Source: Pseudomonadota bacterium (GTDB taxonomy: Bacteria > Pseudomonadota > Alphaproteobacteria > Rhizobiales > Beijerinckiaceae). From it: a stretch of DNA of 64,000 nt. Shown here in pieces: positions 1,262 to 10,896 of this stretch (position 1 is the stretch's first letter; the number at the start of each line of letters is the position of its first letter). The translations under genes and the position numbers were made by a program. The stretch covers positions 62,001-126,000 of the forward strand of contig JAIUNR010000007.1 of the NCBI GenBank assembly GCA_020161575.1, written 5' to 3'. The notes under the pieces were generated by a model. The model saw nothing but the letters and a program-made list of their open reading frames with translations, had not been told where the DNA came from and did not search any database.

Positions 1262-1375
1262 GTTCGCACCATGGCGGCAAGCCCCTTGATCGAGACGCTC
1301 GAAAAAACCATCGAGAATTTCATCATCGGGTGCTTGCCCCGCGCGCAGAAGCTCGCTATGAGCGTGCTTCGCGCA

Positions 1376-1450
1376 GCGCCCTTCGTCTATCGGTTAGGAC
1401 GACAGCCTTTCACGTTGTAAAGACGGGTTCGATTCCCGTAGGGCGCGCCA
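1376..1450 (+). tRNA. tRNA-Glu (anticodon TTC)
   Basis: Full cloverleaf: acceptor arms GCGCCCT and AGGGCGC, anticodon stem ACAGC/GTTGT around loop CTTTCAC (anticodon TTC), T-arm ACGGG-TTCGATT-CCCGT, discriminator G, and an encoded CCA at 1448-1450. Its 3' end faces the lower-GC operon to the right. Confidence 0.95.
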
Positions 1451-1868
1451 CCATCAATTTCACCCGGTTACTCAATATTTTGAGCTGGTGTTTTGGTGCG
1501 GCTATGAAATGTGCGCGCATAACTTCTGTGTGTCTGAGATACTCTTGCGTGGCAATGCCAGCGCTTCAGTGACATGTTTGAACCGCGCGAGATGCCGGTC
1601 TGCAAGGCTCAGCCAGCCCTTCCATTTCTAAAAGCGCGGGCAGTTGCGGCATCAATCATCGGCATGGATGCAATTTCTCCAGCCCGCGCATTGCCGCTTT
1701 CGGAGCTTCTCTCAGTTTGCGCCGCGTTGTCAGAAGGAGGGTCAATGGCTCGCCTTCCCAGCCTGACATTTTCCGACAAGGCACAGTTCGGAACCGCCTT
1801 CATGTCTGGATCGCCCTGGCGCTGATCGGGCATGAGGGCCTGATTTCCCTTTTAAATCATAGTTATCT

Positions 1869-1908
1869 AATGTTGTTTGACCTCCAACATTTATGAGCGA
1901 AATATTCG
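1869..1908. promoter_or_regulatory. Candidate operator (two inverted repeats) upstream of the glycerophosphate operon
   Basis: A seven-base inverted repeat (AATGTTG 1869-1875, CAACATT 1885-1891, nine-base spacer) is followed by CGAA-ATA-TTCG at 1898-1908. Both lie just upstream of the likely -35 box. The operon encodes its own DeoR-family regulator, so these are reasonable binding sites, but this is inference. Confidence 0.4.
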
Positions 1909-1918
1909 ACTCAAAAGA

Positions 1919-1946
1919 TTGACATCAAAAATTTTAATTCTACTCT
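1919..1946 (+). promoter_or_regulatory. Predicted sigma-70-type promoter of the HAD-glpD-ABC operon
   Basis: A perfect TTGACA (1919-1924), a 16-base AT-rich spacer and TACTCT (1941-1946) precede the HAD start by about 75 bases, implying a leader of about 70 nucleotides. No other promoter this good was seen in the gap. Confidence 0.5.
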
Positions 1947-2021
1947 TCAAAGAAACAGGGTGAGATCGTCCAGTCCAATGAGAATGATCGAGAAGCCGGG
2001 CGCCTTTTTGAGAGTGGAAAT

Positions 2022-2855
2022 ATGATTCCGATCGAGAGAGCGGGCGGCGCCTTCGCGGATGTCCGCGTTCTGATGACAGACATTGATGACACGATGACTT
2101 TGGATGGTCGGCTTCCGGGGGAGGCGTATCGTGTTCTGGAGGCGTTGGCGGATGCCGGAATTGCCGTCGTGCCGGTTACGGGGCGCCCGGCCGGTTGGTG
2201 CGACATGATTGCGAGGATGTGGCCGGTCTCGGGTGTTATTGGCGAGAATGGCGCGCTCTGGTTTTCGTACGACACATTTTCCCGCCGGATGCAGGCGATT
2301 TTTGCGCAAGAGGAAGCGGAGCGTGCGGCAAACCGGCTCCGGCTGGATCAGTTGGCGCAACGCATCCTTGCCGGTGTGCCAGGGACGGCGCTTGCCTCTG
2401 ACCAGCCGTACCGGATGTTTGATCTCGCGATCGACCACTGCGAAGATGTTGCGCCGTTGCCGCCCGCCGAGATCTCACGCATTCTTGAAATGTTCGAGGC
2501 GGTTGGAGCTACGGCGAAAGTTTCGTCTATCCACGTGAACGGATGGTTCGGCAGCCATGACAAGCTTGGGATGGCTCGTCGGGTATTGATTGATGTGTTG
2601 GGTATCGAGGCTGACCAGTTTGGAAGCCAGGTCGCGTTTATTGGCGATTCACCTAACGACGAGCCCATGTTTCACGCTTTCCCCCTCTCGGTGGGTGTTG
2701 CGAACGTCAAGCATTTCTTGGGAACGATCCAGAATCTGCCATGCTACGTGACCCAGGAGCGGGGGGGCGATGGTTTTGTTGCCTTTGCCAACATGGTGCT
2801 GGCGGCCCGCAAATCCTCTGCTGCTGCAATCGCTTCGAAGCGGGGTAGCCACTGA
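2022..2855 (+). CDS. HAD-superfamily hydrolase (IIB-like phosphatase)
   Basis: This 277-residue protein has the HAD motif I near residues 20-24 (DIDDT), a motif II threonine in VPVTGRP, and the acidic motif FIGDSPNDEPMF near the C terminus, so it is predicted to be an active Mg-dependent phosphatase. The cap between motifs II and III fits the IIB group, which includes sugar- and polyol-phosphate phosphatases. It is the first gene of the operon, and its TGA overlaps the glpD ATG by one base, implying translational coupling. A role in removing phosphate from a product of an imported glycerophospho-compound is inferred; the substrate is unknown. Confidence 0.8.
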   Translation: MIPIERAGGAFADVRVLMTDIDDTMTLDGRLPGEAYRVLEALADAGIAVVPVTGRPAGWCDMIARMWPVSGVIGENGALWFSYDTFSRRMQAIFAQEEAERAANRLRLDQLAQRILAGVPGTALASDQPYRMFDLAIDHCEDVAPLPPAEISRILEMFEAVGATAKVSSIHVNGWFGSHDKLGMARRVLIDVLGIEADQFGSQVAFIGDSPNDEPMFHAFPLSVGVANVKHFLGTIQNLPCYVTQERGGDGFVAFANMVLAARKSSAAAIASKRGSH

Positions 2856-4402
2856 TGAATGGGCAGCCGTTTGACCTGCTTGTGATCGGCGGCGGCATCA
2901 ATGGCGTCGGAATTGCCCGCGATGCTGCTGGACGCGGCCTGTCGGTGGCGCTCGTGGAGCAGGGTGACCTTGGCAGAGCGACATCTTCGGCTTCGAGCAA
3001 GCTCATCCATGGCGGGTTGCGCTATCTGGAGCAATATGAGTTCCGGCTGGTGCGCGAAGCCTTGATGGAGCGCGAGGTTCTGCTTTCTATCGCGCCCCAT
3101 ATCGTGAGGCCGATGGAGTTCATCTTGCCGCATGATGTCGGGCAGCGGTCCGCCTTGCTGATCCGTGCGGGTCTGTTTCTCTATGACCACCTTGCCCGGC
3201 GCAAGGTTCTCGCCGGCTCGCGTCGTGTCAATCTCGAGCGTGAAGAGCCGGGCGCGGCGCTGGCGCCTGATTTTCGGGTTGGGTTCAGCTATTCAGATTG
3301 TTGGGTGGACGATGCGCGGCTCGTGGTCCTCAACGCGCTCGACGCGAAAGAGCGTGGCGCGGATATCCGAACAGGCTGCCGCTTCATTTCCGCAGCGCCG
3401 CATGAAGGCGTGTGGAAGGTCGAGGTCGAGGATGATCAAGGACAGTACCCACTCCTGGCGAATGTGATTGTGAACGCCGCTGGACCTTGGGTTGAGCAAA
3501 TTCTTGCTCAGAGCGGGATCGATTCAAAGGAATCACGGATTCGGTTGATCCAAGGCAGCCATATCGTTGTTCCGCGCAATTATGCGGGAGAACATGCCTA
3601 TATTCTTCAGAATCCGGATGGTCGAATAGTCTTCATTATTCCTTATGAGCACGATTTTACGCTGATTGGGACGACCGATGTCCCCTTTCAGGACGATCCC
3701 TCGACAGTTTCGATTTCGACAGTGGAGATCAACTATCTCTGCGATGTGGCCAATCGCTATCTTCGTAAGCCGATAGGCCCCGATGACGTGCTCTGGTCCT
3801 ATTCCGGGGTGCGGCCGCTGTTCGATGACCAATCGGCCAAGGCTTCCACGGTTACGCGGGATTACGTTTTTGATCTGCGCGAAGGGGAGGCCCATCCACC
3901 GCTGCTTTCGATCTACGGAGGCAAGATCACCACCTATCGCCGTCTTGCCGAGCACGCCATGCAGCGGCTGAAGCCGCATCTTGCTCGGCATGGCGAGGCC
4001 TGGACATCGCGGGTGCCTTTGCCGGGTGGAGACCTGCCCGATGGCGATTTCCCACGTTTCCTCGCTCGTGTGCTCGAACGCTTCCCATTCCTGCCAGCAG
4101 AAGTGGCTACACGCCTTTCCCGCGCATACGGCACGCGCATTGACCGTGTCCTCGGTAACGCCCGGAGCTGGGCTGATCTTGGGGAGCATTTGGGTGGTGG
4201 ATTGACTGCTTGCGAGGTCGATTACCTTGTTCGCGAGGAGTTCGCCCGAACTGCTGACGACATCCTTTGGCGTCGCGGAAAGTTCGGGCTTCATGGCGGG
4301 AAAAAAATTGCTGAGCGGCTTGCTGCCCATCTCGCGGCACGGGCCAGCGGTAACGAGAAAGAGCGGGCCCTTTCCAAGGCTGCCGATGTAAGGGGGGCTT
4401 GA
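2855..4402 (+). CDS. glpD: FAD-dependent glycerol-3-phosphate dehydrogenase
   Basis: This enzyme oxidises sn-glycerol-3-phosphate to dihydroxyacetone phosphate at the inner membrane and passes electrons to quinone. The 515-residue protein has the N-terminal dinucleotide motif GGGINGVGIARDAAGRG, the GlpD signature SSASSKLIHGGLRYLEQYEF, the conserved stretch LIGTTDVPF and a C-terminal DAO_C-like domain, all at normal family length. It starts inside the HAD stop codon and is followed directly by the ABC ATPase gene. No glycerol kinase or facilitator lies nearby, which suggests its substrate arrives already phosphorylated through the adjacent ABC system. Confidence 0.95.
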   Translation: MNGQPFDLLVIGGGINGVGIARDAAGRGLSVALVEQGDLGRATSSASSKLIHGGLRYLEQYEFRLVREALMEREVLLSIAPHIVRPMEFILPHDVGQRSALLIRAGLFLYDHLARRKVLAGSRRVNLEREEPGAALAPDFRVGFSYSDCWVDDARLVVLNALDAKERGADIRTGCRFISAAPHEGVWKVEVEDDQGQYPLLANVIVNAAGPWVEQILAQSGIDSKESRIRLIQGSHIVVPRNYAGEHAYILQNPDGRIVFIIPYEHDFTLIGTTDVPFQDDPSTVSISTVEINYLCDVANRYLRKPIGPDDVLWSYSGVRPLFDDQSAKASTVTRDYVFDLREGEAHPPLLSIYGGKITTYRRLAEHAMQRLKPHLARHGEAWTSRVPLPGGDLPDGDFPRFLARVLERFPFLPAEVATRLSRAYGTRIDRVLGNARSWADLGEHLGGGLTACEVDYLVREEFARTADDILWRRGKFGLHGGKKIAERLAAHLAARASGNEKERALSKAADVRGA

Positions 4403-5437
4403 ATGGCCGGAATTGTACTCGATCAAGTCTCAAAGCACTGGGCGAATTTTCGCGCAGTGGATGATGTATCCTTCACTGTGGAGCCGGGGACACTCACCGC
4501 TCTGTTAGGGCCGTCAGGTTGTGGCAAATCCACCAGCCTGCGGCTCATCGCCGGACTCGATATGCCGACAGCCGGGCGGATTTTCATCGATAAGACCGAT
4601 GTGACCGAGCTCCCGCCGTCTCGGCGTGGGATCGCCATGGTTTTTCAGAATTATGCGCTTTTTCCGCACCTCACGGTCGCAGAGAATATTCTGTTCGGCC
4701 TCAAGGTACGCAAGGTTCCTCCCGCTGAATGCGAGGAGAGGCTGAAGCGCGCGGCCGATATGCTTGGCCTCGATCCGCTACTCGGACGGAAACCCTCGCA
4801 ACTCTCAGGCGGGCAACAGCAGCGCGTGGCTTTGGCGCGGGCAGTGGTGGCAGAAGCCTCGGTTTGCCTCATGGACGAACCATTATCGAACCTTGATGCG
4901 CAATTGCGCTTGGACATGCGGCGTGAAATCCGAGGTTTGCAGCAGCGCCTCGGGATGACGATGATCTATGTCACGCATGATCAAGTGGAGGCGATGACCA
5001 TGGCGGATCGCATCATTCTGATGCGAGGCGGCCGGATCGAACAGAACGGCACGCCGGATGACCTCTACGACCGCCCTGCCACGACCTTCGCGGCAAGTTT
5101 CATCGGTACGCCGCCAATGAACATCCTGCCGGGAGAAGCGCTCGCAGCGCTCTCCGGTGTAATTTTCCCCGAAGGCAGGCCGCTTGCCGCACTTTCCGCC
5201 GGTATACGCCCTGAAGACGTGACGCTTGGGGCGGAAGGTCTTGCGGCTACGGTGGTCGCTGCCGAGTATCTGGGGTCGGATACGCTTGTCGAGGCCCGGG
5301 TGCAGGCGAACCGTTTCGTGGCGCGCGTCCCGGGCAAGGCTGGCTTGCGGGAAGGCGAATCCATTTATCTCAACTGGAATCTCGGCAAGACACATTGGTT
5401 CGACGCGGAGACTGCGCGGAGGATCGACCGAACATGA
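4403..5437 (+). CDS. ABC transporter ATP-binding protein (UgpC/MalK type)
   Basis: A 344-residue ATPase of the carbohydrate-uptake CUT1 class. Walker A is GPSGCGKST, the signature is LSGGQQQRVALARA, Walker B is VCLMDEPLSNLDAQLR and the switch histidine lies in IYVTHDQVEAMT. The roughly 100 C-terminal residues form the regulatory TOBE-like domain usual in MalK/UgpC proteins. The gene follows glpD with no gap and precedes the binding protein and two permeases, so it should energise that importer. UgpC of glycerol-3-phosphate uptake is the closest functional guess given glpD next door; the family also serves sugars. Confidence 0.9.
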   Translation: MAGIVLDQVSKHWANFRAVDDVSFTVEPGTLTALLGPSGCGKSTSLRLIAGLDMPTAGRIFIDKTDVTELPPSRRGIAMVFQNYALFPHLTVAENILFGLKVRKVPPAECEERLKRAADMLGLDPLLGRKPSQLSGGQQQRVALARAVVAEASVCLMDEPLSNLDAQLRLDMRREIRGLQQRLGMTMIYVTHDQVEAMTMADRIILMRGGRIEQNGTPDDLYDRPATTFAASFIGTPPMNILPGEALAALSGVIFPEGRPLAALSAGIRPEDVTLGAEGLAATVVAAEYLGSDTLVEARVQANRFVARVPGKAGLREGESIYLNWNLGKTHWFDAETARRIDRT

Positions 5438-5536
5438 GATGACTTGGTCTCTGATGGTCTGACAATAAAGCAGAATAAGAATTGCTGATTCAAGCTAGAT
5501 ATCTTCAGCACAGAGCGAAAAAAACGGGAGGAAACG

Positions 5537-6823
5537 ATGGACAGACGCAGATTTCTTGTAGCAACGGCCGCCAGCGCGGCTTTAGTTCGACCGTCCCTTG
5601 CACAGGGCGGTCCGGTGAAGATCTCCTTCTTTTACCCGATTGCTGTCGGCGGTGCGGTGACCCGGCTTGTCGATAATCTCGCGAAGGAATTCAACCGACT
5701 AAACCCGGATGTCGAAGTGACGCCGGTCTATGCCGGGACCTACCAGGAAACCTTGGTAAAGGTTGTCACGGCGCACAAGAGCGGCACGCCTCCGGCGCTC
5801 TCCTGCCTTCTCTCCACTGACATGTTCACGATGATCGATGACGACGCGGTGATCCCGATCGACGGTTTCGTGAAAACCCCGGCTGACAAGGCATGGCTCT
5901 CGAGCTTTTTCCCGGCCTTCATGGCCAACAGCCAGACCGGCGGCAAGACCTGGGGCATACCGTTCCAGCGTTCAACCATCGTCCTCTACTGGAACAAGGA
6001 AGCTTTCCGCGAGGCTGGTCTTGATCCGGAGAAGGCGCCCGCCAACTGGGATGAGCATCTCGCATTCGCGCAAAAGCTCACCAAACGCGATGCCTCCGGG
6101 AATGTCACGCAGTGGGGCACGCAGATCCCGTCGACTGGTTTCCCCTATTGGCTGCTGCAGGCATTGGCCTTGCAGGCGGGTGATGTTCTCGCAAACAGCG
6201 CAGGTAATCGCACGACCTTCAACGCCCCCGGCGTCGCGGCGGGGCTTCAGTATTGGCTGGATCTTGGCCAGAAACACAAGGCTCACGCCCCCGGTATCGT
6301 CGAATGGGGCACAACGCCGAAGGACTTTTTCGAGCGCAAGACGGCCATGATGTGGACGACAACGGGCAACCTTTCGAACGTGCGTGCGAATGCGAAGTTC
6401 CCGTTTGGCGTTGCCATGCTTCCAGAGCAAAAGCGCAGGGGAAGTCCCACCGGCGGTGGCAACCTGATGATCTCCAAGAAGGTTTCGCCGGAACAGCAGC
6501 AAGCCGCTTTCCGCTTTGCGCGTTGGCTCACTGAGCCCGAAATCGCTGCGCAATGGAGCATTGATACGGGCTATGTCGCGGTTTCTCCCGCGGCCTACGA
6601 TACCGCTCGCATGAAGAGCTATGCGCAGGAGTTTCCGCCTGCGCTGGTTGCGCGCGATCAGCTTGAGCATGCCACCGCCGAACTTTCTACCCATGAAAAT
6701 CAGCGCGTCACGAAAGCACTGACCGATAACGTGCAAGCCGCGCTTTCGGGTTCGAAGACCGTCCAGGCTGCGCTCAACGACGCGCAGACCGAGGCCGAGC
6801 GCATTCTGCGCCCTTATCGCTGA
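5537..6823 (+). CDS. ABC transporter periplasmic substrate-binding protein (UgpB-like)
   Basis: A 428-residue extracellular solute-binding protein of the family-1 type found in CUT1 importers. The N terminus MDRRRFLVATAASAALVRPSLAQG has a twin-arginine-like RRRFL motif, a hydrophobic core and an Ala-Gln cleavage site, so export by Tat is plausible. Residues such as TYQETLVKVVTAHKSG and PFQRSTIVLYWNKEAF fit the UgpB branch. A strong ribosome site (GGGAGG) precedes the ATG. It lies after a 99-base gap from the ATPase gene and is followed by a stable hairpin that may protect its message. Binding of glycerol-3-phosphate or a glycerophosphodiester is inferred from glpD. Confidence 0.88.
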   Translation: MDRRRFLVATAASAALVRPSLAQGGPVKISFFYPIAVGGAVTRLVDNLAKEFNRLNPDVEVTPVYAGTYQETLVKVVTAHKSGTPPALSCLLSTDMFTMIDDDAVIPIDGFVKTPADKAWLSSFFPAFMANSQTGGKTWGIPFQRSTIVLYWNKEAFREAGLDPEKAPANWDEHLAFAQKLTKRDASGNVTQWGTQIPSTGFPYWLLQALALQAGDVLANSAGNRTTFNAPGVAAGLQYWLDLGQKHKAHAPGIVEWGTTPKDFFERKTAMMWTTTGNLSNVRANAKFPFGVAMLPEQKRRGSPTGGGNLMISKKVSPEQQQAAFRFARWLTEPEIAAQWSIDTGYVAVSPAAYDTARMKSYAQEFPPALVARDQLEHATAELSTHENQRVTKALTDNVQAALSGSKTVQAALNDAQTEAERILRPYR

Positions 6824-6847
6824 GGGTGGGGGCGTCAGCCCCCTCCC
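6824..6847 (+). other. Intercistronic stem-loop after the binding-protein gene
   Basis: GGGGGC (6828-6833) pairs with GCCCCC (6838-6843) around loop GTCA, extended past one mismatch by GGG/CCC. There is no long T-run. Such hairpins often raise the level of binding-protein mRNA relative to permease mRNA; partial termination is the alternative. Confidence 0.6.
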
Positions 6848-6883
6848 GACTTTTCCCTCAGAGTAGGCCGGAGTGATCATGCA

Positions 6884-7762
6884 ATGAAGAAAAGCCATTC
6901 CGACGCGCTGATTGGCTGGGGCCTAATGGCGCCAGCGATGCTGTTCCTGATTGCGTTCACCCATTGGCCGGCGATCGCGAGCATCATCGAGAGCGTTTAT
7001 TCCACACCACGTGCGCGTCGCCCCTCGAGCTTCGTGGGGCTTGATAATTATGAGCAGATTCTGGCGGATCCGGTCTTCTGGCAGTCATTCACGAACAATC
7101 TATGGTTCGCGGTTGGCACGATCCCGGCGTCAATTTTCCTCGCTATTCTCATGGCCCTATGGGTCAATGACCGCATACCGGGGCGTACCTTTGCGCGGAT
7201 GGCTTATTTTACGCCCACAGTGCTGCCGATGATCGCGGTGGCCAATATATGGCTGTTCTTTTTTACCCCTCAATATGGGCTGCTCGACCAGGTCATGGGG
7301 CTCATCGGGCGCCCCGCCACAAACTGGCTCGGCACCAAGGATACCGCCCTGTGGGCCGTTATCATGGTTGCGGTCTGGAAAGAGGCCGGGTTCTTCATGA
7401 TCTTCTACCTGGCCGCGTTGCAGGGTATTTCGCCTGTTCTGGCAGAGGCTGCGAGCCTGGAGGGGGCCTCGCGATGGACTTTCTTCCGCCGTGTGCAGTT
7501 CCCGCTTCTGATGCCCACGACGTTGTTTGTGCTGATTAATGCCGTGATCAACGCGTTTCGCATGGTTGACCACATCATCGTCATGACACGGGGAGGGCCA
7601 GATAATGCGACGTCCCTGCTGTTGTTTTACATCTATCAGGTCGGTTTCAACTTCTGGGATACGGCCTACGCCGCCGCGCTGACAGTGTTCATGCTTGTCT
7701 TGCTCGCTGGCGCTGCGGCTATCCAGTATGGCTGGCTCGAGCGGAAGGTTCATTATTCATGA
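6884..7762 (+). CDS. ABC transporter permease (UgpA/MalF-like)
   Basis: A 292-residue inner-membrane permease with six predicted helices, the first at residues 10-30. The cytoplasmic EAA loop, which docks the ATPase, is seen in EAASLEGASRWTFFRRVQFPLLMPTT. Size and layout match binding-protein-dependent sugar or glycerol-phosphate permeases of the CUT1 class. Its end overlaps the next permease start by four bases (ATGA), so the two subunits are probably made in equal amounts and form a heterodimeric channel. Confidence 0.88.
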   Translation: MKKSHSDALIGWGLMAPAMLFLIAFTHWPAIASIIESVYSTPRARRPSSFVGLDNYEQILADPVFWQSFTNNLWFAVGTIPASIFLAILMALWVNDRIPGRTFARMAYFTPTVLPMIAVANIWLFFFTPQYGLLDQVMGLIGRPATNWLGTKDTALWAVIMVAVWKEAGFFMIFYLAALQGISPVLAEAASLEGASRWTFFRRVQFPLLMPTTLFVLINAVINAFRMVDHIIVMTRGGPDNATSLLLFYIYQVGFNFWDTAYAAALTVFMLVLLAGAAAIQYGWLERKVHYS

Positions 7763-8631
7763 GTTCGCTTCACTCTCCTTCACCCTCGCTCCGGCCGGAA
7801 GAGCGGTACGATCCTTTTGCGCCGAAAGGTTTTGGCAAATTTCTCGAAAGCGCGGGCGCCATATTGCTTGGCGTGCTTTGGATTCTGCCGCTTCTGTTCG
7901 CGATTTGGGCAGCCTTCCATGCACCCGAGCACACAACACGGTTCACGTTGAACGCGCCATTGACGTTGGAGAACTTTGTTCGCGCATGGCACGCTGCGCC
8001 GTTCGGGCGCTATTTCCTGAACACCATCCTGCTCGTGACAATGATCTTTGTTTGCCAGGTCGTGCTCTGCACGCTTGCTGCCTATGCATTCGCCCGGTTC
8101 GATTTTCCGGGTCGGGGCATTGCTTTCGCGTTGGTGCTTTCGCAGCTCATGGTCATGCCGGACGTGCTGATCGTTGAGAATTATCGGACCATGTCTTCTA
8201 TCGGCTTGGTCGATACCCTACCCGGCATCGCTTTGCCTTACGTGGCGTCCGCATTCGGGATTTTCCTCCTTCGGCAGACATTTCGTACGGTGCCTCGCGA
8301 ACTGGATGAAGCCGCGCGCATTGAGGGCGCGAGCGCTCTCCAGGTGCTCTTGAAGGTTTACGTGCCGCTGGCGAAACCCATCTACGTTGCTTACGGGCTG
8401 GTCTCAGTGTCGTATCACTGGAACAATTTCCTGTGGCCGCTGATCATCACGAATTCTGTGGAAGCCCGCCCGCTGACTGTTGGCTTGCAGGTCTTTTCCG
8501 CGAGTGATCAGGGGGTGGACTGGGCGATTATTTCGGCGGCGACTTTGATGACTTCGGCGCCGCTACTGATCGGTTTTCTGCTGTTCCAGCGGCAGTTTGT
8601 GCAAAGTTTCATGCGGGCGGGAATTCGCTGA
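7759..8631 (+). CDS. ABC transporter permease (UgpE/MalG-like)
   Basis: The second permease, 290 residues, has a longer cytoplasmic N terminus (about 25 residues) before the first helix and the EAA loop EAARIEGASALQVLLKVYVPLAKPIY. It begins within the stop region of the first permease and its TGA overlaps the next ATG by one base. With its partner, the ATPase and the binding protein it completes a full importer. The position of the EAA motif and the total length are normal for the family. Confidence 0.88.
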   Translation: MSSLHSPSPSLRPEERYDPFAPKGFGKFLESAGAILLGVLWILPLLFAIWAAFHAPEHTTRFTLNAPLTLENFVRAWHAAPFGRYFLNTILLVTMIFVCQVVLCTLAAYAFARFDFPGRGIAFALVLSQLMVMPDVLIVENYRTMSSIGLVDTLPGIALPYVASAFGIFLLRQTFRTVPRELDEAARIEGASALQVLLKVYVPLAKPIYVAYGLVSVSYHWNNFLWPLIITNSVEARPLTVGLQVFSASDQGVDWAIISAATLMTSAPLLIGFLLFQRQFVQSFMRAGIR

Positions 8632-9470
8632 TGACTCGGCTTTGTCTGACAAGCTGGAACATCCAGTGGGCGCGAGGAATTGACGGCCAGGTCAATTGTG
8701 AGCGTATCGCCAGCGAAATCGCAGCGGTCGATCCCGACGTGATTTGCCTTCAGGAAGTGGCATCGGGCATGCCCGATCTTCCTGGTGCCGATGGCTCAAA
8801 CCAGTTTGATATCTTTGCCCGGCTTTTTCCGGATTACCGGCTCATTGCCGGGCCAGGGGTTGAGACTTTCGATTCGGATGGAGGAGCCCGTCTCTTTGGC
8901 AATGCGATCCTGTCCCGCCTGCCCATTATCTCGGTGCGGCGGCACGCTTTGCCCTGGATCGCGGATGGTGCCCAGACCATGCCTCGATTGTTGCTTGAAG
9001 TGATCGTCGTCACGGCCTGTGGCCCTGTGCGAATGATGACGACGCATCTTGACTATTTTTCGGCCGCGGCGCGTGCCGCCCAGCTGGAAGCTATCCGCAC
9101 GATCCTTGTCGAGACACAGGCCCGTGCTCATGCCATGCCGAAACCGGCTTCAGGCCCCTACCTAGAGGTGGGGCATCCGGTTGCGACTGTTCTGTGCGGC
9201 GATTTCAATATGCCGCCCGAAAGCGATCTCTGGCCGATACTCACCGAAGCGGGCCCAGGTTTCTCGCCGCTCGTCGATAGTTGGCGTGTGCTTCATAAAG
9301 AGGCTCATCCACCATCCTTCTGTATCACGGAGCAGGTCTATGGTCCGCCCCAGTGCACGGACTATGTGTTGACGAATGCCGATCTCGCGAAGCAGGTTAC
9401 AGGCATCCATTATGACGTTGCTACCCGTTCTTCGGACCATCAACCTGTAACAGTGGAATTTCGCATCTGA
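8631..9470 (+). CDS. Endonuclease/exonuclease/phosphatase (EEP) family hydrolase, probable phosphodiesterase
   Basis: A 279-residue protein with the EEP-fold catalytic motifs in order: Asn in LTSWNIQW (residue 10), Glu in CLQEV (residue 42), GDFNMPPESD, and the terminal SDHQPV. These residues coordinate Mg and cleave phosphodiester bonds in nucleases, inositol phosphatases and sphingomyelinases. There is no signal peptide, so it acts in the cytoplasm. Translational coupling to the permease and co-occurrence with glpD suggest it cleaves an imported glycerophosphodiester to release glycerol-3-phosphate. This role is inference; a DNA-repair role is less likely given the operon. Confidence 0.8.
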   Translation: MTRLCLTSWNIQWARGIDGQVNCERIASEIAAVDPDVICLQEVASGMPDLPGADGSNQFDIFARLFPDYRLIAGPGVETFDSDGGARLFGNAILSRLPIISVRRHALPWIADGAQTMPRLLLEVIVVTACGPVRMMTTHLDYFSAAARAAQLEAIRTILVETQARAHAMPKPASGPYLEVGHPVATVLCGDFNMPPESDLWPILTEAGPGFSPLVDSWRVLHKEAHPPSFCITEQVYGPPQCTDYVLTNADLAKQVTGIHYDVATRSSDHQPVTVEFRI

Positions 9471-9521
9471 GCGGAAAGAGGTTATCGAGAGCGTCATCGC
9501 TACATGAGGAAGTGAGCCGGA

Positions 9522-10298
9522 ATGGTTAGTGACGACGGGCTCTCCAAAAAGCAGAGGCGGCAGCGCTTAATCGTTGCCGAGATCTCGGCCAACGCAACCA
9601 TTCGAACCTCGACACTTGCGCAGCTCCTCAACGTAACGCCGGAGACGATCCGGCGTGACATCGAGGAGCTAACTCGCCAAGGAATCGTGCGGCGCACCTA
9701 TGGGGGCGCTGCCGGCGCCTTTGCGGGGTTGCAGCCGATTTTCGAAGAGCGCAGCGCCATTGATGTCGAGGAGCGGCGGAAAATCGCTGAGAATGCGGCA
9801 GCGCTTGTTGAGCCAAACTCAGTCATCATGATCGATTCAGGGTCGACCACGACGCTTTTTGCCCAAGCGCTATCAACGCAACCCAAGAAATTCACTGTGA
9901 TCAGCAATTCGCTGGGGGTTTTGGGGGCTTTGGCCGGGCATCCCGATGCACGGCTCATTCTTTGCCCGGGAGACTATTCCCGCCGCGAACGCGCTGTTTA
10001 TGGCCCAGAAACGCTTGCATTCTTGAACCGCTTTAACGTCGATGCCGCCTATATCGGTGCAAGCGGTATGATGGCCGATGGTCCTGTCGATGTTGAAACG
10101 GATGCGGTTTGGGTTAAACGGACGATGCTGTCTCGTGCGAAAACAAGTGTACTCCTTGCAAGTTCGATAAAAATAGGTCGCCCGTATCTCGCTGTAATTT
10201 GCCCGTGGCAAGACATTGATGTGTTCATTACTGATAAAGAAATAACTGGCTCTTTCCAGGATGTAATATTGAGCAGGAATATTCGAGTAATATTTTAG
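9522..10298 (+). CDS. DeoR/GlpR-family transcriptional regulator
   Basis: A 258-residue regulator with the DeoR N-terminal helix-turn-helix (LAQLLNVTPETIRRDIEELTRQGIVRRTYGG, residues about 25-60) and a C-terminal sugar-phosphate sensor domain (IMIDSGSTTTLFAQAL; VLLASSIKIGR). Members usually repress catabolic operons until a phosphorylated intermediate binds; GlpR responds to glycerol-3-phosphate. It is the last gene of the operon, so it probably controls its own transcription. In the sensor domain the usual LADSSKFGR-like stretch reads LASSIKIGR, so ligand binding may differ from typical GlpR. Its 3' end is clearly AT-richer than the flanking chromosome. Confidence 0.88.
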   Translation: MVSDDGLSKKQRRQRLIVAEISANATIRTSTLAQLLNVTPETIRRDIEELTRQGIVRRTYGGAAGAFAGLQPIFEERSAIDVEERRKIAENAAALVEPNSVIMIDSGSTTTLFAQALSTQPKKFTVISNSLGVLGALAGHPDARLILCPGDYSRRERAVYGPETLAFLNRFNVDAAYIGASGMMADGPVDVETDAVWVKRTMLSRAKTSVLLASSIKIGRPYLAVICPWQDIDVFITDKEITGSFQDVILSRNIRVIF

Positions 10299-10328
10299 AA
10301 TAAGACCCAATAAATGAAATAATTTGAT

Positions 10329-10364
10329 AAAAACAAGCCACGCAGGATTAGGCGGGCTGTTTTT
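10329..10364 (+). terminator. Rho-independent terminator of the glycerophosphate operon
   Basis: AAAAAC, AGCC and CGC (10329-10343, two single-A bulges) pair with GCG, GGCT and GTTTTT (10352-10364) around an eight-base loop. The T-run at 10360-10364 lies about 60 bases after the DeoR stop. The A-run on the other side could let it act in both directions. Confidence 0.75.
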
Positions 10365-10647
10365 GTACAATAGAGTGTTGGCGGCCGGCTGAGGCGATGG
10401 AGCATGCGGCGAGTTGGCTTAAGAAGCCGGAATCGCCTGCTGGCCGTAGTATTACGACTGCCTATGTGGGCTCATGACGCAACCAGTATGCTTTTCGCAT
10501 CGCCCATCGCTTCTGCAAGGCGCGCTTCAAGGCGAGTCAGTATTGTGCTGCGTACAATGGGGGCACGCATGAGGCGCCCTTCAGTCATCCGGGTATGTAC
10601 GTCATTCACCCGCAGGGGTGCTGAGCGCGCGTTTTGTTGGAAAGAAT
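10365..10647. other. Intergenic region, nothing recognised
   Basis: This stretch between the operon terminator and tRNA-Ala has one open frame running into the tRNA, with no domain and no ribosome site. It contains no tRNA-end duplication or mobile-element signature that I can see. Confidence 0.5.
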
Positions 10648-10723
10648 TGGTGGAGCTAAGCGGGATCGAACCGCTGACCTCCTGCATGCCATGCAGGCGC
10701 TCTCCCAGCTGAGCTATAGCCCC
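10648..10723 (-). tRNA. tRNA-Ala (anticodon GGC)
   Basis: Read on the minus strand: acceptor GGGGCTA/TAGCTCC, D-arm GCTCAGCTGGGAGAGC, anticodon stem CCTGC/GCAGG around loop ATGGCAT (anticodon GGC), T-arm with GGTTCGATCC, discriminator A and an encoded CCA (TGG at 10648-10650 on the plus strand). Its 3' end also faces the lower-GC operon. Confidence 0.95.
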
Positions 10724-10896
10724 ATCAGAACCATGCCTGGGAGCATGGCGGGCCGGCTCTTGCGAACCGGAGGCGCGTTCAATGTCACAAGACTTTGCGC
10801 ACCGCAAGAGGATATTCGATCCCGGGGCAAGGATTTTTGCCGGGGGTGTGGAAGGCGCGGATTTTCCGCGCCAACCGGCGTTAAAACGGGGAAAGC

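What the first reader, a model, noticed from the sequence alone, without database searches (positions are those of the whole stretch)
1919..10364. Self-contained glycerol-3-phosphate / glycerophosphodiester module with HAD and EEP enzymes
Eight tightly coupled genes encode a HAD phosphatase, GlpD, a full ABC importer, an EEP phosphodiesterase and a DeoR regulator, between one promoter and one terminator. GlpD is normally paired with GlpK and GlpF; here there is neither, so the substrate seems to enter already phosphorylated. The EEP protein has no signal peptide, so a whole phosphodiester may be imported and cut inside, with the HAD enzyme handling the other half. The layout recalls opine-phosphodiester catabolism (for example agrocinopine) but with different enzyme families. 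The combined pathway is inference.
Basis: partly seen in the sequence, partly recalled or inferred. Interest (0 to 1): 0.7.

Follow-up and report, generated by a model that had tools for sequence, protein, structure and literature searches.

The report
Second Ugp-type phosphodiester uptake operon
An eight-gene bacterial operon seems to import a glycerol-phosphate compound whole, cut it inside the cell with an unusual type of phosphodiesterase, and burn the glycerol part; it is a new variation on a known nutrient-uptake system.

Summary
The eight genes are real and read as one operon (HAD-IIB, GlpD, UgpC-B-A-E-like importer, EEP hydrolase, DeoR) ending in a strong hairpin.

(1) The importer belongs to an uncharacterised UgpB sister group: phosphate-binding positions are kept, the glycerol end of the pocket is changed. 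The genome has a canonical UgpB elsewhere, so this is a second, different importer.

(2) EEP lies behind this importer in 20 of 42 EEP loci examined, but only 15 of 72 genomes with a close UgpB have EEP: it is accessory.

(3) Two relatives carry canonical UgpB-A-E-C, then a GDPD (UgpQ type), DeoR and a HAD of the same family: the window's set of roles with GDPD in EEP's place.

(4) The HAD is probably not EEP's partner: in 20 of 43 loci it sits by GlpD, a glycerol-1-phosphate dehydrogenase relative or the G1P/G3P importer GpxB.

Best reading: a glycerophosphodiester is imported, EEP cuts it, GlpD oxidises the G3P, and the HAD acts on a glycerol phosphate. Substrates are inferred. Against: 18 of 42 EEPs have no such importer, and some importer loci lie by nucleotide-type phosphoesterases.

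The parts
2022..2855 (+). HAD-IIB family hydrolase, 277 aa (motif I DIDDT, motif IV GDSPND); stop overlaps the GlpD start by one base
   Evidence: best curated model is phosphoglycolate phosphatase PRK01158 at 52 bits, far below its cut-off of 198; HAD-IIB subfamily cut-off just reached (43.1 of 41.8)
2855..4402 (+). GlpD, aerobic glycerol-3-phosphate dehydrogenase, 515 aa
   Evidence: 739 bits, cut-off 360; 52% identical to a second GlpD in the genome
4403..5437 (+). UgpC-like ABC ATPase
   Evidence: 400 bits to the UgpC subfamily model (cut-off 432)
5537..6823 (+). UgpB-like substrate-binding protein, Tat-like signal; uncharacterised sister group of UgpB
   Evidence: best solved structure by sequence 4aq4, E. 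coli UgpB
6884..7762 (+). UgpA-like permease
7759..8631 (+). UgpE-like permease
8631..9470 (+). EEP-superfamily hydrolase, no signal peptide, catalytic-type residues N10 E42 H139 D191 N193 D244 D269 H270 intact (roles recalled)
9522..10298 (+). DeoR/GlpR-type regulator
10324..10370 (+). Terminator-like hairpin with A tract, GC stem and T tract
   Evidence: -18.4 kcal/mol, z -5.0
1870..1892 (.). Possible operator: AATGTTG-N9-CAACATT inverted repeat upstream of the operon; could be chance
1376..1450 (+). tRNA-Glu (ttc), left neighbour of the module
10648..10723 (-). tRNA-Ala (ggc), right neighbour; synteny with sibling genomes starts here

Best explanation
The operon is a second, specialised Ugp-type system for glycerophosphodiesters. 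The binding protein and ABC importer bring an intact phosphodiester into the cytoplasm. The EEP enzyme hydrolyses it there, doing the job that the unrelated GDPD enzyme UgpQ does in E. coli. The sn-glycerol-3-phosphate released is oxidised by the operon's own GlpD to dihydroxyacetone phosphate, and the DeoR/GlpR-type protein senses a glycerol phosphate. The HAD-IIB enzyme is most likely a glycerol-phosphate phosphatase (draining excess, or removing the enantiomer that GlpD cannot use) rather than an enzyme for the other half of the diester. Shown here: gene content, recurring gene order, intact catalytic residues, kept phosphate-binding positions, and the linkage of the HAD with GlpD, GpxB, G1PDH relatives and a UgpB-A-E-C-GDPD set. 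Inferred: every substrate and reaction except the GlpD assignment.
For: Direct parallel: in G202 and G281 a UgpB with the canonical pocket, then UgpA, E, C, a GDPD (150 and 168 bits, PF03009), DeoR and a HAD 42% and 39% identical to the window's lie in one run on one strand; EEP replaces GDPD in the window. EEP lies behind UgpE of the importer subfamily in 15 of 24 relatives from the order sample, 1 of 9 new ones from the phylum sample, 1 of 2 Variovorax loci and 2 of 6 plasmid regions opened out of 17 hits (in Comamonas a VOC gene lies between). With the window: 20 of 42. EEP and UgpB trees share their main groups, though not the finer order. Eight catalytic-type residues are invariant in 23 of 23 aligned EEPs. 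UgpB phosphate ligands Tyr64/Ser143/Ser266/Tyr342 (PMC12718374) map to Y69/S146/T275/Y346; three are identical in 16 of 16 rows and the third is Ser or Thr. Glu88, Trp191 and, in the window, Arg393 are replaced, while the genome's other UgpB (C4:125210-126487) keeps them. Importer, EEP, HAD and GlpD also occur together in G011 and, with GlpD divergent, in G350, where a GpxB relative (337 bits to 9lf9) follows the HAD. Roseomonas marmotae has DeoR-HAD-GpxB importer-GlpD. Genomes with EEP have the HAD more often than expected: 9 of 25 against 3.5 (relatedness ignored). One EEP-less importer locus has a GDPD beside it (L186). Na/Pi cotransporter genes lie in 2 of 18 EEP-importer loci and 0 of 20 EEP-less ones.
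Against: No substrate was measured. 18 of 42 EEP loci have no Ugp/CUT1-type importer recognised in the stretch held; some lie by ndk and rlmN, which looks like a core position, so EEP may have a general function. Only 15 of 72 genomes with a close UgpB have EEP, and 20 of 20 EEP-less importer loci opened have no GlpD, HAD, G1PDH or GpxB beside them, so the importer does not need this set. Four of those 20 lie by 5'-nucleotidase-type (L183, L187) or other metallophosphoesterase genes (L189, L190), which fits nucleotides at least as well. Only 3 of 20 EEP-importer loci carry GlpD; leaving out the window, 2 of 18 has p about 0.011 under a rough assumed background of 0.009 per locus. The best fold matches of the EEP model are 4ruw (function not given), then TDP2, nocturnin and exonuclease III. 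The changed glycerol end could mean a ligand without glycerol.
Confidence: 0.5

Rival explanations
1. The operon is a plain G3P (and G1P) uptake and oxidation operon, and EEP is an accessory or passenger enzyme of a broadly distributed family, not a step of the pathway.
For: The importer is common without EEP (72 of 397 genomes have a close UgpB, 15 of those 72 have EEP). 18 of 42 EEP loci have no such importer. Canonical UgpB binds G3P and G1P (PMC12718374).
Against: The genome already has a canonical UgpB with the full G3P pocket. The window's pocket has lost Glu88, Trp191 and Arg393 at the aligned positions. EEP stays with the importer in 20 loci whose trees share their main groups. In two relatives the same slot holds a GDPD.
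Confidence: 0.2
2. The importer takes up a different phosphoester, such as a nucleotide or short nucleic-acid fragment, and EEP is a nuclease-like phosphodiesterase for it.
For: PMC12718374 places a Thermus dinucleotide-binding protein on UgpB's branch; the chains 7c16 and kin match the profile at 136 bits (that they are this protein is recalled, not checked). EEP folds next to nucleases. EEP-less importer loci L183 and L187 have 5'-nucleotidase/metallophosphoesterase genes and L189 and L190 metallophosphoesterases nearby. A Nitratireductor EEP-importer run has a relative of the cyclic-nucleotide phosphodiesterase SpdA, 219 bits, below that model's cut-off of 400.
Against: GlpD, HAD, GpxB and GlpR-type regulators accompany some of these clusters; E. 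coli UgpB is closer (200 against 136 bits); a GDPD lies beside one EEP-less importer.
Confidence: 0.17
3. One reading: the diester is cut to G3P plus a phosphorylated partner (or glycerol plus a sugar phosphate), and the HAD dephosphorylates that partner, as in agrocinopine catabolism.
For: HAD and EEP genes recur together with two HAD families: HAD-IIB here and in G011 and G350, HAD-IA in Phyllobacterium. HAD-IIB models include sugar phosphatases. The HAD also follows the UgpB-A-E-C-GDPD set in G202 and G281, as a partner enzyme might.
Against: 17 of 20 EEP-importer loci lack the HAD in the stretch held. HAD relatives lie by GlpD, a G1PDH relative or GpxB in 20 of 43 loci and by EEP in 2. The three HADs found with EEP lie on different branches.
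Confidence: 0.12

Closest known systems
E. coli UgpBAEC with UgpQ
   Same: UgpB-family binding protein, UgpA/E/C importer, cytoplasmic phosphodiesterase (UgpQ's role recalled)
   Different: EEP fold in place of the GDPD fold; binding-protein pocket changed at the glycerol end; GlpD, HAD and DeoR in the operon
GpxBCD(E) G1P/G3P transporter of marine bacteria (PMC12718374) with the HAD/GlpD neighbours found here
   Same: HAD-IIB, GlpD and DeoR beside an importer for glycerol phosphates (Roseomonas marmotae plasmid)
   Different: PhnD-type importer instead of a Ugp type; no EEP
Agrocinopine (acc) catabolism, Agrobacterium
   Same: Import of an intact phosphodiester, then AccF phosphodiesterase and AccG putative phosphatase (PMC4526662, passages)
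   Different: Ligands are sugar phosphodiesters; homology of the acc proteins to these was not tested here
M. tuberculosis UgpB (glycerophosphocholine binder)
   Same: CUT1/UgpB branch, phosphate ligands kept
   Different: According to PMC12718374 it keeps the glycerol-contacting Asp and Arg; the window's protein has Ser and Thr at the positions aligned to Glu88 and Arg393 of Phaeobacter UgpB

Membership tests
UgpBAEC (sn-glycerol-3-phosphate ABC importer) | Curated equivalog/subfamily cut-offs for UgpB, A, E, C | tested here: not met
   UgpB 180 of 411, UgpA 131 of 335, UgpE 137 of 297, UgpC 400 of 432 bits; relatives, below cut-off
UgpBAEC (sn-glycerol-3-phosphate ABC importer) | Phosphate ligands Tyr64, Ser143, Ser266, Tyr342 | tested here: met
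   Y69, S146, T275 (Ser to Thr), Y346; by sequence alignment, not structure
UgpBAEC (sn-glycerol-3-phosphate ABC importer) | Glycerol end: Glu88, Gly303, Arg393, Trp188/Trp191 | tested here: not met
   Gly303 and Trp188 kept; Glu88 to S93, Trp191 to Q196, Arg393 to T392
UgpQ / GDPD glycerophosphodiesterase | GDPD fold (PF03009) | tested here: not met
   EEP is PF03372; GDPD matches lie elsewhere in the genome
EEP superfamily | PF03372 match and N, E, D-N, D, D-H residues | tested here: met
GlpD | Curated equivalog cut-off | tested here: met
   739 of 360 bits
GlpR / DeoR regulator | DeoR HTH and DeoRC sensor domains | tested here: met
   GlpR equivalog cut-offs not reached
HAD-IIB glycerol-phosphate phosphatase (proposed) | Activity on G1P or G3P | not testable with these tools
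   only genomic association
Agrocinopine acc system | AccA-type importer and AccF/AccG homologues | not tested
   Ti plasmid not fetched; comparison rests on passages of PMC4526662

The most novel reading that the evidence does not exclude
The HAD-IIB enzyme is the missing enzyme that lets bacteria use sn-glycerol-1-phosphate, the archaeal lipid backbone. It dephosphorylates G1P that GlpD cannot oxidise, which would explain why it sits with the G1P/G3P importers GpxB and UgpB, with G1P dehydrogenase relatives and with GlpD. The window operon extends this to whole glycerophosphodiesters of either handedness through a Ugp-type importer and an EEP enzyme acting as a new class of glycerophosphodiesterase.
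Probability: 0.15. Interest if true: 0.75.

Novelty: new variant of a known kind. Interest (0 to 1): 0.45.

Why it matters
If true, the EEP superfamily gains a nutrient-scavenging role: a cytoplasmic glycerophosphodiesterase coupled to an importer, a non-homologous substitute for UgpQ. It also gives two concrete targets. One is a UgpB sister group with a changed pocket, close relatives of which occur in 72 of 397 genomes sampled. The other is a HAD family linked to GlpD, G1P dehydrogenase relatives, GpxB and Ugp-GDPD sets. The second bears on how G1P is used after uptake; 'phosphatase' and 'glpD' do not occur in the held main text of the paper that described GpxB.

Tried and rejected
Clean insertion at a tRNA: not shown. 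No direct or inverted repeat of 16 bp or more was found in 1300-10800. In three sibling genomes the tRNA-Ala/aroA block and the EamA/tRNA-Glu block lie about 500 kb apart (G082) or on different contigs (G287, G354), so the module sits at a junction of two blocks, not in a simple gap.

Pho-box regulation: in the window the best match is no better than shuffles (5 mismatches, shuffle median 5). L048 has 2 mismatches, below the lowest of 100 shuffles (3); L049 and L065 have 3. Not pursued.

GpxB near L041 and L044: counted and in a Fisher test inside (5 of 19), then dropped. The hits are only 32-33% identical and an iron alcohol dehydrogenase lies next to the one in L041, so this is probably another phosphonate-type importer. 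Corrected count: GlpD in 3 of 20 EEP-importer loci.

'No enzyme replaces EEP in EEP-less importer loci': my first view, from ORF starts alone, was wrong. A family scan of the nearest likely ORF on each side of the 20 loci (40 ORFs, plus two further ORFs in L183 and L188) found a GDPD in L186, 5'-nucleotidase/metallophosphoesterase genes in L183 and L187, and metallophosphoesterases in L189 and L190; the other 15 loci showed none. Genes further out were not scanned. In the same check the GDPD of L138 and L139 was found, which raised the best reading from 0.45 to 0.5 and the nucleotide rival from 0.12 to 0.17.

Literature: no paper on an EEP-type glycerophosphodiesterase appeared in the searches; 'endonuclease exonuclease phosphatase' had 0 occurrences in the papers listed there (20 of 27 and 15 of 357). 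Searches gave background. PMC12718374: outline, sections 4 (part 1) and 9, and passages. PMC4526662: passages only. Others: listings only.

Rows left out: 13 of 56 non-self HAD matches were not examined (43 were). In one search a GlpD end piece at a contig edge in L128 fell under the score limit and is not counted. The UgpB alignment A1 leaves out L044 (stop inside), L068 (reading frame broken), L046 (contig end) and the later L228. 11 of 17 plasmid EEP hits, 120 of 126 plasmid HAD hits and 54 of 56 plasmid GpxB hits were not opened as such (Nitratireductor NZ_CP139722 and Roseomonas NZ_CP061092 hold both HAD and GpxB and were opened through the HAD). 37 of 57 EEP-less genomes with a close UgpB were not opened. 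The second structure job was not used.
Full report
What is there. The window holds eight + strand genes from 2022 to 10298: HAD-IIB, GlpD, UgpC, UgpB, UgpA, UgpE, EEP and DeoR. Gaps are -1, 0, 99, 60, -4, -1 and 51 nt, so an operon is likely. A terminator-like hairpin follows (z -5.0), though the simple scan did not list it; no promoter stands out from shuffles. GC in 1-kb steps is about 55-60% over the module and 52-53% at its right end, against about 62-63% on the left and mostly 62-67% on the right. GC3 of the eight genes is 0.57-0.72; six of seven flank ORFs measured are higher. The module lies between tRNA-Glu and tRNA-Ala.

Genome context. The window's genome is an unnamed 3.19 Mb assembly. 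Three other members of the genus were in the sample; none has an EEP or HAD match or a close UgpB match. In these three the tRNA-Ala/aroA side is syntenic, while EamA with tRNA-Glu sits elsewhere. The module was therefore gained, or kept only here, at a junction of two blocks. The same genome has GlpK, a second GlpD 52% identical, two GDPD matches, an MIP/aquaporin-family channel and a canonical UgpB. That substrate must enter phosphorylated because GlpK and GlpF are absent holds for the cluster, not for the cell.

The importer. The binding protein's best solved relative by sequence is E. coli UgpB (4aq4, 148 bits alone, 200 with the 16-row profile). Using contacts published for Phaeobacter UgpB (PMC12718374), the phosphate-coordinating positions are kept in 16 of 16 rows: Tyr64 as Y69, Ser143 as S146, Ser266 as T275 (9 Thr, 7 Ser), Tyr342 as Y346. 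Gly303 is G307 in 16 of 16; Trp188 is W193 in 15 of 16. The other end differs: Glu88 is S93 (15 Ser, 1 Ala), Trp191 is Gln, Met or Glu, and Arg393 is Thr (6), Arg (7) or Tyr (3), Thr in the window. The 20 EEP-less relatives look the same at most of these positions. Invariant D95 and R390 lie two residues away and may substitute; that is open. The genome's other UgpB-like protein keeps the canonical residues. The window's importer is therefore a second, differently tuned system. Close UgpB relatives (E at most 1e-90) occur in 72 of 397 genomes of the order sample, own included; 15 of the 72 also have EEP.

The EEP enzyme. It has the EEP fold (model pLDDT 72, pTM 0.79, three-row alignment; best match 4ruw, then TDP2, nocturnin, exonuclease III). 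The catalytic-type residues are invariant in 23 of 23 aligned rows (roles recalled). In the order sample 25 of 397 genomes, own included, match at E at most 1e-20. Of the 24 relatives, 15 have EEP immediately after a close UgpE, 2 lie by a more distant CUT1-like importer and 7 by neither. In the phylum sample 11 of 398 match at E at most 1e-30; of 9 new loci one has the importer. Of two Variovorax loci one has it. Of six plasmid regions opened out of 17 hits, two have the Ugp type (Comamonas with a VOC gene between, Bradyrhizobium), two a different CUT1-like importer (Phyllobacterium, Nitratireductor) and two neither, though Paraburkholderia has another sugar ABC system about 1 kb away on the other strand. 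In all, with the window: 20 of 42 Ugp type, 4 other CUT1-like, 18 neither. On the EEP tree the 20 are not one clade (AU test) but fall mostly in two groups; main groups match those of UgpB, the finer order does not always. Lone EEPs in L226 and L229 lie beside ndk (and rlmN in L226, by family scan), apparently a core position. EEP is thus an accessory enzyme kept with this importer in two lineages, not a marker of one fixed pathway.

EEP-less importers. Of 57 genomes with a close UgpB and no EEP, 20 loci were opened. They carry UgpC-B-A-E, 10 of 20 with a DeoR match beside it, and none has HAD, GlpD, G1PDH or GpxB. Nearest likely ORFs on each side were scanned: L186 has a GDPD (149 bits), convergent, about 0.75 kb from UgpE; L183 and L187 have 5'-nucleotidase/metallophosphoesterase genes; L189 and L190 have metallophosphoesterases, that of L189 33% identical to the SpdA-like enzyme of L070. 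The other 15 show no phosphoesterase. So 5 of 20 have a phosphoesterase close by: one favours glycerophosphodiesters; the others favour phosphoesters in general and nucleotides at least as much.

The HAD enzyme. 56 of 397 genomes, own included, have a relative. I examined 43 of 56 non-self matches. Within 600 bp, 10 have GlpD, 10 have a G1P dehydrogenase relative (PF13685 in the three scanned with Pfam; PRK00843 at 144 bits, cut-off 413, in the one scanned with NCBIfam) and 5 have GpxB; 20 of 43 have at least one; 2 have EEP; 5 others have a ThiO-like FAD oxidase; 18 have none of these, four of them with DeoR or an FGGY kinase close by. Against 0 of 20 EEP-less importer loci, Fisher p is 9e-5 (a control of another locus type, relatedness ignored). 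GpxB was recognised by 337 and 309 bits to 9lf9, the GpxB-G1P structure. In G202 and G281 the HAD (42% and 39%) ends a run UgpB-A-E-C-GDPD-DeoR-HAD in which UgpB has the canonical pocket: the same roles as in the window, with GDPD in EEP's slot and without GlpD. Named examples: Roseomonas marmotae DeoR-HAD-PhnD/C/E/E(GpxB type)-GlpD; Nitratireductor rhodophyticola HAD-DeoR divergent from the Gpx-type genes with a Na/Pi cotransporter beyond; Rhizobium leguminosarum and Shinella G1PDH-HAD-GlpD; S. meliloti G1PDH-HAD. Against: two Rhodobacterales GpxB loci opened have no HAD beside them, and a 41% relative in Citrobacter lies among unrelated genes. On a quick HAD tree the three that occur with EEP (window, L042, L045) fall on different branches. 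The HAD is best read as a general glycerol-phosphate enzyme; its presence supports a glycerol-phosphate theme rather than a special partner for EEP. Genomes with EEP have the HAD in 9 of 25 cases against 3.5 expected.

Regulator. DeoR matches (21-33% identity) lie by 11 of the 15 order-sample EEP-importer loci. Upstream of UgpC in L050 and L068 lies TATGTTC-ATAT-GAACATA, resembling the recalled E. coli GlpR operator; the window has AATGTTG-N9-CAACATT, which could be chance.

Mechanism and status. The most likely working is import of an intact glycerophosphodiester, intracellular hydrolysis by EEP and oxidation of G3P by GlpD, with the HAD acting on a glycerol phosphate. It works like UgpBAEC-UgpQ but misses the UgpB equivalog cut-off and the glycerol-end residues, and its hydrolase is not a GDPD, so it is filed as a variant, not a member. 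It resembles agrocinopine uptake in logic only. No activity was measured. The late finding of the Ugp-GDPD-DeoR-HAD sets raised the main reading from 0.45 to 0.5, and the nucleotidase neighbours raised the nucleotide rival from 0.12 to 0.17.

Noticed in passing
window 1376-1450 and 10648-10723: The module lies between tRNA-Glu and tRNA-Ala; in three sibling genomes the two flanking blocks are about 500 kb apart or on different contigs, so the region is a rearrangement junction.
   Followed up: partly
L206 5623-9339, L207 5655-10903, L210 4457-14655: Rhizobium, Shinella and Sinorhizobium plasmids carry G1P dehydrogenase-HAD(-GlpD) with FGGY kinases and sugar-type ABC importers; I did not establish the substrate.
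   Followed up: partly
L209 5039-11729: Roseomonas marmotae plasmid operon DeoR-HAD-PhnD/C/E/E-GlpD, a parallel of the window operon with a GpxB-type importer.
   Followed up: yes
   Followed up: yes
L226 5354-10445 and L229 6518-10532: EEP relatives without importer a few kb from ndk, apparently a core-genome position in another proteobacterial group.
   Followed up: partly
L069 4626-10586 and L052 8892-10520: A more distant EEP lies with a different CUT1-like importer; in L069 a HAD-IA hydrolase follows, and L052 has a HAD-like ORF (read by eye).
   Followed up: no
L070 3614-9858, L189 3763-4653, L053 about 14.6-15.4 kb: SpdA-like metallophosphoesterases lie near Ugp/CUT1-type importers with and without EEP.
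   Followed up: partly
L183 3673-5673 and L187 3428-5020: 5'-nucleotidase/metallophosphoesterase genes beside EEP-less importers of the window's subfamily.
   Followed up: partly
   Followed up: no
L042 15585-17237, L048 2764-4422, L208 1-1352, L138 13489-13992: Na/Pi cotransporter-family genes lie beside glycerol-phosphate loci, possibly to export surplus phosphate.
   Followed up: partly
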